Shown here piece after piece: positions 21,196-61,727 of a stretch of DNA of 64,000 bases (its first letter is position 1; every line of letters starts with the position of its first letter). The stretch is from Pagrus major (lineage: Eukaryota; Chordata; Actinopteri; Spariformes; Sparidae). Location of the stretch: assembly GCF_040436345.1 (NCBI RefSeq), contig NC_133232.1:25574315-25638314 (forward strand), written 5' to 3'. The position numbers and the translations under genes are program-made. The notes under the pieces were generated by a model that made no database searches, was not told where the DNA came from, and saw only the letters and a list, made by a program, of their open reading frames with translations.

Positions 21196-21216
21196 TGTGC
21201 TGTCCATGGTGCTGAC
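21196..21216 (-). promoter_or_regulatory. RE1/NRSE-like site, first of two between g1 and g2
   Basis: GTGCTGTCCATGGTGCTGAC on the plus strand is a minus-orientation NRSE (17 of 21). The interval 21,025-22,231 otherwise holds no gene. Confidence 0.6.
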
Positions 21217-21409
21217 AGACAAGCTTGAATATATTGTGGTGATTTTCAAGCATACAAGTAAGTTTGTTTTTTAAACTTTATGGATTTTATTTATTGATTT
21301 CAAAGAATAAACGTGTGATTTGTATTTAAGCAATTTTTTAACACAATTCAATTTTAGTCCACATGTAAATGTTTCTTTCATTTGCTGTTTTGAGCCTGCT
21401 GGTTGAACC

Positions 21410-21430
21410 TGTGCTGTCCATGGTGCTGAA
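21410..21430 (-). promoter_or_regulatory. RE1/NRSE-like site, second between g1 and g2
   Basis: GTGCTGTCCATGGTGCTGAA matches 18 of 21 consensus positions. It is 194 bp from the first copy and in the same orientation. This is the copy closer to the g2 promoter. Confidence 0.65.
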
Positions 21431-21970
21431 AGCTTGTTTTGATTCACGTTGCTTTTGGAGGTTTTGGCAATACAATGAATGTCAGGTGCCCTGAGTGAAT
21501 AATCACAATTGTTATGAATTAGGTTTGTATTTCCCATTCAGTTATTGTTTTTATGTCCAGCCACGTGTTTTGTATTGACAGTATGTGAATCAATTGTTCA
21601 CTGGAAAGTTGTTGAGAGTTGCGAAGTAGATTTACAATGTGTTTCTCTTCTATTTTTGCTGATGGGGTTACATGTTATTTAACAACGCATATTATTGCAG
21701 CTGTTACTTATTGTCCTATTAATTGTCTATTAACCACACACCTACAGTAAGTCCACGCTGACCGGTGGTTGCTAAGACACATAAACATGTAGTTGACTTG
21801 CTGGAGGAGGCAGACCTGAGCATCCTCCACAAAGAGAGACTGGGGTGCGTTTTAACTCATCAGCTCATCACGTGTCCTTTAGGAGTTGGCAGCATGGAGG
21901 GACATATAGATAGAGAACGAGGTGTTGAGGTAAAACACTTGTGATTTAGTATCGTATTGCAGCCCACAGG

Positions 21971-21992
21971 CCACATGGTGTCAGTGTGTGCT
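21971..21992 (+). promoter_or_regulatory. CSE/CTCF-like promoter element of g2
   Basis: CCACATGGTGTCAGTGTGTG contains the GGTGTCAGTG core shared by the gamma promoters, about 240 bp before the g2 start. Confidence 0.5.
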
Positions 21993-22231
21993 AATGGTTG
22001 TGTTGCTGAGTCTACACAGGCCCTGCCCATCTCGGGATCATTTCTGATGGAGGTGCCTTGCTGACGGAGTACACATCGTAGGCTCTGTATCAAGTCACAT
22101 AAATATCGGTTTATATTTATGTGTGAAATCGTCGATTCGAGAGTCGTGAAATGGATCTAATTAGACAGCTCTGGTGAGCAGTTGGGTCACTGTATTTGCT
22201 TCACAGAAAGCATTCATTTTTGTGCTTCACA

Positions 22232-58338: not shown

Positions 58339-58580
58339 GTAAAAAGTCAGCGTTGCCCGAGCTTGTCGTCACTGCTATTTGGTTCCACCTCCTGATAACA
58401 TTCAGACTTCAACACTGGCAGGATCGTTTCTCTGCTTATTTTGTGTAAATGATGGATTTGCCCCAGTTTCTGGCTATATAGAAAGTCAATGACTGTTTAG
58501 AGAGAGGGAAGTGTTGGATTCCGTCTATACAACGTAGTTATTTTCCTCGTGATGGATTACTGCTGATTTCGGGTTTAACC

Positions 58581-60938
58581 ATGGAACAAAGACGATACGA
58601 GCCACGACGGGCGCGAGGATATCTGGTCGGCTGCGTGGTTGCTGTGCTTTTGTGGAGCGTGGCCTCGGCGCAAATAAGATATTCAATCTCTGAGGAAGTG
58701 AACGAAGGAACTGTGGTTGGAAATATAGCAAAAGATCTGGGATTAGATAAAAGCACGCTGAAAGAAAGAAGGTATCGGATTGTTTCGAGTAATGCGGATC
58801 CGCTTTTCCATGTAAATCAGAACGATGGCATCCTGTATGTGAGCCGAAAGATTGACAGAGAAGAGGTGTGCGCACAGAGCAGTACGTGTTTAATAAATCT
58901 GAAAACCGTCCTAGAAAACCCGCTGGAGGTCCATTATGTTGAAGTGGAGGTGCTGGATATAAATGATCATTCTCCCACTTTCCCGGACGAGGAAACAACG
59001 TTGGAGATTTCAGAGTCCGTGTTACCCGGAGTACGTATTCAGCTAAAAGCGTCGCGTGATCCGGACAGTGGTCATTTCTCCGTGCAACGCTATAAACTTA
59101 GCGACAATGATAATTTCCGATTGGAAGTTAAGGATAAAGGGGACGATGGTAAAATACCAATATTAGTAGTACAGAAATCTTTGGATAGGGAAACAGCAGG
59201 AAGTCACTCCTTAGTGCTGACCGCACTGGATGGAGGGAAACCTCCCAAATCCGGCGAGATGAATATTAAAGTAAATGTTTTAGATATTAATGATAACGCA
59301 CCTGTTTTCTCTCAAGAAGTTTATTCTGTGATGCTTAATGAAAATGCTCCAGTAGGTACAACAGTCATACAAGTCAATGCCACTGACTTAGATGAAGGAC
59401 CAAACGGAGAAGTAGTTTATTCATTTACCAACAGTATAAATCAAAGGCTGTTAAAACTATTTGATATAAATCCATCAACAGGTGAGATAATTGTCAAAGG
59501 TTTAATAGATTATGAGCACAAGGACAAATATGAAATTGAAATTCAAGCATCAGATAAAGGTCTGGCTCCACTGGCTACGGAAAAAAGCGTCATTATTAAG
59601 ATAGTAGATGTGAATGATAATGCACCTGAGATTGAAGTTACCTCATTTTCAAGCTCCATCCCTGAAGATTCCAGACCTGGAACTACAGTTGCTCTTATCA
59701 GTGTAAATGACTTGGACTCTGGTCTGAATGGAAAAATGATTTGCTCCATAAGTGATGATGTTCCTTTTACATTATCACCATCCTTAAAGGACAAAATGTA
59801 TTCATTAGTCACCAAATCTCCTCTGGACAGAGAGAAACAGTCACATTATGAACTAACAATAACTGCAAAAGATGCTGGTCAACCTCCATTATCATCTGAA
59901 AAGACAATAAGTGTTGTGGTGTCAGATGTGAATGACAACAGTCCAGAGTTTTCACAGAGTCCATATACTTTCTATGTCACTGAAGCTAATGAGCCAGGTA
60001 CCTCTGTGTTCTCTGTTAAAGCTTTTGATCGTGATGAAAACGACAATGCTCTCATATCCTATCATATTCTCAGAGATGGAAGGGAAGAAAATAAATTGGC
60101 TTCGTTCCTAAATATCAACTCTGAAACTGGAGACATTCTGGCTTTAAAAAGTTTTGACTTTGAAGTTCTGAAAACGTTCCAGTTCCAAGTTGTCGCCACA
60201 GATTCTGGAGCTCCGCCACTGAGCAGCAACGTCACAGTGAACGTGTTCATTCTGGATCAGAACGACAATGCTCCAGTCATCCTGTATCCAGTCAGCGCCA
60301 ACGGTTCTGCTGAAGGTGTGGAGGAGATTCCCCGCAATGTGAACGCAGGACACTTGGTGACTAAAGTCAGAGCCTATGACGCTGATATAGGATATAACGG
60401 CTGGTTACTATTTTCACTGCAGGAAGTTACTGACCACAGCCTCTTTGGTTTGGACCGTTATACAGGACAGATCAGAACACTTCGCTCATTCACAGAGACA
60501 GACGAGGCTGAGCATAAACTGCTCATACTGGTCAAAGACAATGGGAACGTTTCTCTCTCAGCAACAGCTACTGTCATTGTCAAACTTGTGGAGCCCAAAG
60601 AGGCTTTTGCTGCTTCTGATGTTAAAAGTGCCGCTAAAGTTGACGAGGAGGACAATGTGACATTTTATCTGATGATCACTTTGGGCTCAGTTTCTCTACT
60701 TTTTATCATCAGTATCATCGTGCTGATTGCGATGCAGTGCTCCAAATCCACAGACTATACTTCTAAATATCTGCAAGAGACTAATTATGATGGGACACTG
60801 TGCCACAGCATCCAGTACAGATCTGGAGACAAACGCTACATGTTAGTTGGACCCAGAATGAGTATAGGATCTACTATAGTCCCTGGCAGCCATGCCAATA
60901 CTCTAGTGCTTCCTGACAGGAGGAGAGGATCTGGAGAG
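58581..60938 (+). CDS. Protocadherin gamma-type variable exon g13
   Basis: 786 codons, [15 protein letters not shown]. The signal peptide and EC1 are nearly the same as g12; differences cluster in EC2 ([33 protein letters not shown]) and EC3 ([20 protein letters not shown]), the surfaces used for isoform recognition. The homogenised block carries a few private changes (GAPPLSS, SANGS, KSAAK), more than any other gamma copy. The tail ends RRRGSGE before GTAAGA. Its 3' flank is unlike those of g11 and g12, so the recent duplication breakpoint lies near 60,940. Confidence 0.95.
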
Positions 60939-60951
60939 GTAAGACATATTT

Positions 60952-60986
60952 AAAAAAAAGAAAAGAAAGAAAAGAAAGAAAAACAA
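60952..60986. repeat. Purine-rich (AAAAG)n-like simple repeat
   Basis: Imperfect AAAAG/AAAG units just after the g13 donor. Confidence 0.8.
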
Positions 60987-61706
60987 AATTCTTTTAAAAA
61001 GAATTTGCAGTATGAGGAATGATATTGGTAGTAGACAAAAAAGTTGTATGAAAATTGTGAAGTGCTTTTCTGATGATTTGATTTGTGTATTTGCTCACTA
61101 CACACATAACACTCTGAATACTTTGCTGGTGTAGTTGTATGGTTCTGCAAACTATTGTGCTGAATCTGCTGTTTGTTCTTTGGTTTACATTGTGGGATTG
61201 ATGCTTCGTCATTTTCATGGCACATTTCTCTCTTATGGGTGAACCTGGCTGGCTATATACATTTAAGTTGATTGAGCATTTTATGAGTCATTTTCTAGTT
61301 CATGATTTTGTCACTAGTTTGAACAGCTCTATCAGCATTCTGACCTTGCTTATAGGCTATACAGTTTTGACTTTGCACACTGGTTGCTATTTTCCATCTC
61401 TTGCAGATCATAACATGATTAGTGCTGGTTGGTCTTTTTTGTTGCAATGTTAAATTCTTTTTTTCAATTCAACATTTGTGGTTATTTCATAGTCTTCCTA
61501 TTTTCATATGATATTTTTAGACGTGCAGACCATGCAGTTACAGTTCAGTTATTGGAAATATTGTGTGTTTAGATGAGGAGATATAGTCCTGCTCCCAATA
61601 AAGGAGAGCTGACTGATAACAGATACATCAGGGTGCTGCAGCATCAGTATCACTATACCTACTGTAACTTCACTGACTGTATCTAGACTGTGCTGCAGTC
61701 AGTGTG

Positions 61707-61727
61707 GTCGCTGTCCATGGTGCCCAA
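61707..61727 (-). promoter_or_regulatory. RE1/NRSE-like site between g13 and g14
   Basis: GTCGCTGTCCATGGTGCCCA plus A matches 17 of 21, with the GCTGAA half changed to GCCCAA. The spacer 60,939-62,306 has no gene. Confidence 0.5.

What the first reader, a model, noticed from the sequence alone, without database searches (positions are those of the whole stretch)
21196..61727. Array of RE1/NRSE (REST) sites, one per gamma-gene interval, all in the same orientation
A 21-bp motif built on CTGTCC-ATGG-TGCTGAA recurs at 21196, 21410, 24767, 28086, 31956, 35241, 38593, 38888 (weak), 42034, 45148, 48210, 54641, 57997 and 61707. It is the reverse complement of the NRSE consensus, matching 16-19 of 21 positions by hand count. 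The closest site lies 400-900 bp before each start codon, while the DNA around it is mostly diverged between genes, so the motif is selectively kept. REST sites scattered in mammalian Pcdh clusters are known, and to my recall they lie largely inside variable exons. A regular intergenic array would give each gene a private neural-restriction or isolation switch. Seen: the motif and its spacing. Inferred: REST binding.
Basis: partly seen in the sequence, partly recalled or inferred. Interest (0 to 1): 0.88.

Follow-up and report, generated by a model that had tools for sequence, protein, structure and literature searches.

The report
REST silencer sites before fish protocadherins
Nearly every gene in a row of fish nerve-cell adhesion genes (protocadherins) has a well-preserved docking site for REST, a protein that keeps nerve genes off in other tissues; the sites look real, but this arrangement is already described in pufferfish.

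Summary
The motif is real. All 14 listed sites are present (17-20 of 21 positions fit the NRSE/RE1 consensus), and a 15th lies at 16869, inverted. Shuffles give 0.07 matches against 15; density is about 128 times the genome average. Twelve of 13 intervals between array exons carry a site; 51111-51884 has none. The 21-bp core is 82% identical between sites while flanks average near chance, though a few intervals share longer stretches.

Three corrections. (1) The genes are Pcdh-alpha, not gamma: the next constant exons downstream match alpha; gamma constants lie about 440 kb away. (2) The shared orientation is local: in gamma-side subcluster E, 25 of 28 sites point the other way, so orientation looks inherited by tandem duplication. 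(3) The arrangement is not new: a 2013 review (PMC3601302, passages) says fugu Pcdh NRSEs lie in promoters and mammalian ones in coding sequence, citing Tan et al. 2010.

Most likely REST silences each alpha promoter outside neurons through these sites; occupancy was not testable here. Verdict: a real new member of a known kind, of modest interest.

The parts
16869..16889 (+).
   Evidence: (2 mismatches of 21), (16-base core perfect)
21196..21216 (-). RE1/NRSE (strand = canonical NRSE direction), interval 1, core perfect; lies with 24767 in a shared 352-bp stretch
21410..21430 (-). RE1/NRSE, interval 1, core perfect
24767..24787 (-). RE1/NRSE, interval 2, 3 mismatches of 21 (core 2)
28086..28106 (-). 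RE1/NRSE, interval 3, core perfect
31956..31976 (-). RE1/NRSE, interval 4 (core 1 mismatch)
35241..35261 (-). RE1/NRSE, interval 5, core perfect
38593..38613 (-). RE1/NRSE, interval 6, 4 mismatches of 21 (core 1)
38888..38908 (-). RE1/NRSE, weaker second site of interval 6 (core 2 mismatches)
42034..42054 (-). RE1/NRSE, interval 7; core TCAGCACCACGGACAG, identical to the REx1 element tested in zebrafish
45148..45168 (-). RE1/NRSE, interval 8 (core 1 mismatch)
48210..48230 (-). RE1/NRSE, interval 9; core identical to REx1
54641..54661 (-). RE1/NRSE, interval 11, core perfect
57997..58017 (-). RE1/NRSE, interval 12, core perfect, recent duplicate of 54641
   Evidence: intervals 11 and 12 94% identical
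61707..61727 (-). RE1/NRSE, interval 13 (core 2 mismatches)
51111..51884 (.). interval 10: the only interval between array exons in the window without an RE1; its CSE-like element is kept
18667..21024 (+). first of 14 array exons: Pcdh-alpha variable exon (cadherin repeats, Cadherin_C_2 match, splice donor GTAAGA)
62289..64000 (+). last array exon in the window, cut by the window end
1420..3825 (+). variable exon of the preceding alpha subcluster (different tail); no RE1 in its neighbouring intervals 364-1419 and 3826-5618
5619..8027 (+). variable exon of the preceding alpha subcluster
21976..21985 (+). CSE-like promoter element (N)GGTGTCAGT, 198-257 bp before the start codon in 13 of 13 intervals with at most 1 mismatch in 9 bases (others at 25433, 28697, 32229, 35557, 39225, 42336, 45328, 48489, 51632, 55022, 58324, 62045); before the first array exon only a poor match at 18472

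Best explanation
Each Pcdh-alpha variable exon of this subcluster has its own promoter with a CSE-like element 198-257 bp before the start codon and, for 12 of 13 in the window, an RE1/NRSE 180-666 bp further upstream (nearest site of each gene). Shown: the sites, their placement, their retention in diverged spacers, and a REST-like zinc-finger gene in the genome. Inferred: REST binds them in non-neuronal cells and precursors, recruits corepressors and keeps the exon promoters silent; when REST falls in neurons, stochastic CTCF- and enhancer-driven promoter choice can act. Also inferred: the array arose by tandem duplication of an exon-plus-RE1 unit and was held by purifying selection while the spacers drifted.
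For: 15 sites against 0.07 in shuffles; 1435 genome matches against 6 for the backward control, and 1830 against 90 with the published core. 9 of 15 sites are perfect to that core. PMC3531662 section 13 says that three common fish NRSE elements bind Rest, one with accATGg in it (so, I infer, the core of six window sites), and that constructs with one, two or four NRSEs gave brain-only expression in at least 10% of embryos against 0 of 114 without; its REx1 core is that of 42034 and 48210. Core identity 0.82 against 0.24-0.32 in flanks; the CSE-like element scores 0.61. Elsewhere in the locus: 3 of 4 stretches of the same subcluster beyond the window, 4 of 4 of subcluster C, 2 of 4 of D, 24 of 30 loci of E have a site with at most 4 mismatches. 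Recalled human REST zinc fingers match one place at 80% over 87 aa, the next at 42-44%. Fugu precedent: PMC3601302 passages.
Against: No binding or expression data. One of 13 intervals in the window and one of 4 stretches beyond it lack a site; subclusters A (0 of 4 stretches at up to 4 mismatches) and F (0 of 2) lack canonical sites, so an own RE1 is not needed for every Pcdh gene here. Six of 15 sites have 1 or 2 core mismatches that could weaken binding. Some neighbouring spacers share more than the RE1. No orthologous fish sequence could be compared.
Confidence: 0.88

Rival explanations
1. The sites are merely passengers of recent tandem duplication and gene conversion, with no present function.
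For: Intervals 11 and 12 are 94% identical; intervals 1 and 2 share 352 bp at 74% from the splice donor, spanning 21196 and 24767; 48 bp at 81% surround 28086 and 31956. Exon 3' ends are homogenised, a known conversion effect in fugu (PMC1852091 section 7).
Against: Of 91 pairs of sites only 1 has a 100-bp flank above 45% ungapped identity; lenient gapped alignment of whole intervals averages 0.711 against 0.696 with shuffled partners, so most spacers have lost detectable similarity while the 21 bases remain. Subcluster C (6 sites) and the 25 inverted sites of E show the same contrast.
Confidence: 0.06
2. The sites work as insulators between neighbouring genes, or as a private switch per promoter in the choice of isoform within neurons, rather than as general non-neuronal silencers.
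For: Near one-per-interval spacing. PMC8096226 (passages) reports that REST at the HS5-1 enhancer lowers enhancer-promoter contact, and its authors suggest that NRSEs in each gene may serve repression of non-chosen members.
Against: Nothing in the sequence tests it. Orientation is not a general rule, and the site-less gene at 51885 keeps an open exon and a CSE-like element.
Confidence: 0.1
3. The motif is carried by a dispersed repeat that happens to hold an RE1.
For: Two of eight genomic control loci (L002, L004) share 153 bp at 78% around the site.
Against: No pair of the other six control loci shares more than about 33 bp at the site, and the window shares only the site itself (21 bp) with L005 and L008 there; window sites mostly share only the 21 bases.
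Confidence: 0.02

Closest known systems
NRSEs of the fugu Pcdh clusters (Tan et al. 2010, NAR 38:4985; paper not held, seen through passages of PMC3601302)
   Same: Multiple NRSEs, placed in promoters of teleost clustered Pcdh genes; the review says that deleting NRSEs from Pcdh constructs shifts expression in transgenic Xenopus tadpoles from neural to ubiquitous.
   Different: Whether Tan et al. report the same regularity could not be checked.
Exonic NRSE sites a, b, c of human PCDH alpha and gamma (Tang et al. 2021, PMC8096226, section 20 read)
   Same: One or two REST sites per alternate variable gene of alpha and gamma, nearly all bound by REST in vitro (PCDH gamma a9 site b is not).
   Different: Human sites lie inside the variable exons. 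In this window none of the 15 canonical sites found at up to 5 mismatches is inside a variable exon.
Fugu FrPcdh2-alpha 8-25 / zebrafish DrPcdh2-alpha 8-25 paralog group (Yu et al. 2007, PMC1852091, sections 5, 7 and part 1 of 6 read)
   Same: Middle alpha subcluster with homogenised 3' exon ends, between an upstream and a downstream alpha subcluster; order alpha then gamma.
   Different: Assigned by position and constant exons only; no fugu or zebrafish sequence was compared.

Membership tests
Canonical RE1/NRSE | Two half-sites with a 2-bp gap: TCAGCACC-nn-GGACAG | tested here: met
   9 of 15 perfect, 3 with 1 mismatch, 3 with 2; gap 2 in 15 of 15
Canonical RE1/NRSE | Enriched over chance | tested here: met
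   15 against 0.07; genome 1435 against 6
Canonical RE1/NRSE | Bound by REST in vivo | not testable with these tools
   No ChIP data on hand
Canonical RE1/NRSE | A REST protein exists in the species | tested here: met
   One match 80% identical over 87 aa of recalled human REST zinc fingers, next 42-44% (150 of 1650 candidates scored); orthology by identity only, no tree
   The next constant-region matches downstream, C18:25760312 and 25769725, fit alpha (90% and 79%); the gamma constant is at 26080470 (query peptides recalled)
Clustered Pcdh-alpha | Variable exons upstream of alpha constant exons | tested here: met
   splicing itself not tested
Teleost alpha group III (alpha 8-25) | Orthology with fugu/zebrafish group III by an EC1-3 tree | not tested
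   Position agrees with PMC1852091; sequences not compared
Promoter-type fish Pcdh NRSE | Site in the 5' intergenic region, not in the exon | tested here: met
   14 of 14 array sites intergenic

The most novel reading that the evidence does not exclude
REST control of clustered Pcdh genes is a conserved regime whose DNA sites are repeatedly rebuilt: exonic in mammals and intergenic in this fish, where one alpha subcluster carries an array in one orientation and a gamma-side subcluster an array mostly in the other, 20 of its 28 sites at a near-fixed distance after the exon tail. Selection would then act on 'one RE1 per promoter' rather than on inherited sites, and pairing of an RE1 with a CSE at each promoter could gate isoform choice gene by gene.
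Probability: 0.15. Interest if true: 0.6.

Novelty: new member of a known kind. Interest (0 to 1): 0.3.

Why it matters
It gives a clean example of near one-to-one pairing between Pcdh promoters and REST sites in a fish, with built-in comparisons: genes with two, one or no site, and subclusters with opposite orientation or no canonical site. That makes the question whether REST acts per promoter or regionally in Pcdh clusters directly testable by editing single sites. The general fact, REST sites in fish Pcdh promoters, is already in print.

Tried and rejected
Rejected: gamma identity. Rejected: orientation as a functional rule. Rejected: wide-gap sites as the main pattern; scanning gaps 0-12 with at most 2 mismatches gave the 15 gap-2 sites plus two overlapping secondary readings at 21410 and 48210, and no hits for reversed halves. 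Rejected: a dispersed repeat as carrier.

Led nowhere: Tan et al. 2010 is not held (one search used a wrong DOI); Mortazavi 2006 is not held; the lizard Pcdh paper holds none of silencer, NRSE or CSE. Searches of the held library for fish REST data on Pcdh gave nothing on point in their listings; this is no proof of absence, since most subscription papers are not held. The nearest solved structure to the array exon is protocadherin-10, so the structure search alone did not settle alpha or gamma. My first genome pattern was mistyped with two extra N, and its zero hits mean nothing.

Limits of the counts: for flanks only the 8 control loci L001-L008 of 1435 genome matches were compared. E rests on 30 of 33 tail matches listed between 25.923 and 26.030 Mb, each with 1.5 kb either side, so the 5' parts of those exons were not scanned. 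C, D, A, F and the rest of B rest on short stretches after the exon tails, 4, 4, 2, 2 and 4 of them, plus two A intervals of the window.
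Full report
The window is C18:25574315-25638314 (+) of a 785.9-Mb, 25-contig genome. It holds one cut and two complete variable exons of one protocadherin subcluster (ends 363, 3825, 8027) and 14 variable exons of a second one from 18667 on, the last cut by the window end. The three exons given to Pfam have cadherin repeats and a Cadherin_C_2 match; exons end at a GT donor. 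Start codons are the first ATG of each open frame.

The observation. The 18-base core with up to 3 mismatches gave 15 matches against a mean of 0.07 in 100 dinucleotide shuffles, largest 1. In the genome this core with up to 2 mismatches occurs 1435 times against 6 for the backward pattern; that density predicts 0.12 sites in 64 kb against 15 seen, about 128-fold. The published 16-base fish core, TCAGCACCnnGGACAG with up to 1 mismatch, occurs 1830 times against 90; zebrafish had 1102 (PMC3531662 section 13). Nine of 15 window sites are perfect to it, three have one mismatch, three have two.

Placement. Of 13 intervals between array exons, 12 have at least one site and two have two; 51111-51884 has none, its best matches having 8 (+) and 10 (-) mismatches. 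The nearest site lies 423-910 bp before the ATG and 180-666 bp before a second shared element, (N)GGTGTCAGT, which stands 198-257 bp before the ATG in 13 of 13 intervals; before the first array exon the match is poor. I read this as the CSE, from its position as described in PMC4978886 (passages); CTCF binding was not tested. None of the 15 sites is in an exon.

Retention. Mean pairwise identity is 0.82 in the 21 bases and 0.24-0.32 in flanking 21-bp windows; for the CSE-like element it is 0.61. One of 91 pairs has a 100-bp flank above 45% identity. Whole intervals align at 0.711 on average against 0.696 with a shuffled partner; intervals 11 and 12 stand out at 0.94. Against this, local alignment finds shared stretches: intervals 1 and 2, 352 bp at 74%, spanning 21196 and 24767; 48 bp at 81% around 28086 and 31956; 33 bp at 91% around 21410 and 35241; and promoter regions of intervals 3, 4 and 6 (listing cut at 60 rows). 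So descent by duplication is visible for some, and selective retention is the better account of the rest.

Identity of the genes. Of 130 PF16492 matches, about 125 lie on C18 25.53-26.07 Mb in subclusters that share a tail, and three on C13. Five constant-region matches lie at C18:25760312, 25769725 and 26080470 and at two places on C13. The first two fit alpha constant peptides (90%, 79%), the third gamma (56%), those of C13 alpha (87-97%, peptides recalled). The array therefore sits in the alpha cluster of a Pcdh2-like locus. Order and number of subclusters agree with fugu, where alpha 8-25 belongs to a group that seems teleost-specific (PMC1852091 sections 5, 6 part 1, and 7). By structure search the ectodomain of exon 48732 scores higher to Pcdh alpha 7 (531 bits) than to gamma A9 or B2 (470, 474) over the same span, but protocadherin-10 (592) and gamma B4 (552) over longer spans score higher still, so that search is only weak support.

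Comparison within the genome, counting sites with at most 4 mismatches. Subcluster B beyond the window: 3 of 4 stretches. C: 4 of 4. D: 2 of 4. A: 0 of 4 (two intervals of the window, two fetched stretches, one of which has a 5-mismatch match beside a 5-mismatch control hit). F: 0 of 2. E, on the gamma side by position: 24 of 30 loci, 28 sites, 25 on the opposite strand and 3 on the same strand, all after the exon tail, 20 of them 164-268 bp after the tail-domain match; no backward-control hits. The 25 inverted E sites have chance-level flanks; the three others share theirs. The C13 locus has two perfect sites in 100 kb, in opposite orientations. Uniform orientation is thus a property of a subcluster, as expected from descent.

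Mechanism. A REST-like gene is present. Human NRSEs lie inside variable exons, one or two per alternate alpha and gamma gene, and in the HS5-1 and HS7 enhancers; REST at HS5-1 lowers enhancer-promoter contact (PMC8096226 section 20 read, other passages). [quoted passage not shown] 2010 (passages). By my recall, not from any call, the Tan abstract adds that genes without an own 5' NRSE are governed by those of neighbours; the site-less gene at 51885 would be such a case. Two window sites (42034, 48210) have the very core used as REx1 in zebrafish, where constructs with one, two or four NRSEs gave brain-only expression in at least 10% of embryos against 0 of 114. Binding and silencing here remain inferred.

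Verdict. The motif and its reading as RE1/NRSE are right. The gamma label, the weight put on orientation and the implied novelty are not. It is a well-developed new member of a known arrangement.

Noticed in passing
window 42066-42150: Orphan copy of the array exon's 3' end (27 codons in frame, ending [24 protein letters not shown], with a GTGAGT donor) in interval 7, about 12 bp after the RE1 at 42034; it has N where the 13 complete array exons have H, so it may have escaped gene conversion.
   Followed up: partly
window 9791-9883: Relic of a tail of the preceding alpha subcluster (31 residues, 71%) in the 10.6-kb gap between the two alpha subclusters.
   Followed up: no
window 3826-5618 and 8028-9035: The stretches after exons 1420 and 5619 share about 1 kb in pieces at 82-91% identity, a recent duplication without RE1s.
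   Followed up: no
L053 4598-4792 (C2:2574598-2574792): Four RE1s with perfect 16-base cores, three of them identical over 21 bases, spaced 58 bp apart in a tandem repeat: a compact REST-site array elsewhere in the genome.
   Followed up: partly
C18:25945221-25955220 (L019-L021): Three neighbouring gamma-side units with RE1s in the orientation opposite to the rest of their subcluster, with conserved flanks and a slightly different tail match.
   Followed up: partly
C13:2375265 and 2394440 (L048, L049): The small second Pcdh-alpha locus has just two canonical RE1s in the 100 kb fetched, both perfect over 21 positions and in opposite orientations.
   Followed up: partly
L002 and L004, around 1484-1636: Two distant genomic RE1s on C1 share 153 bp at 78%, so some RE1s may have spread in a repeat or duplicated segment.
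   Followed up: no
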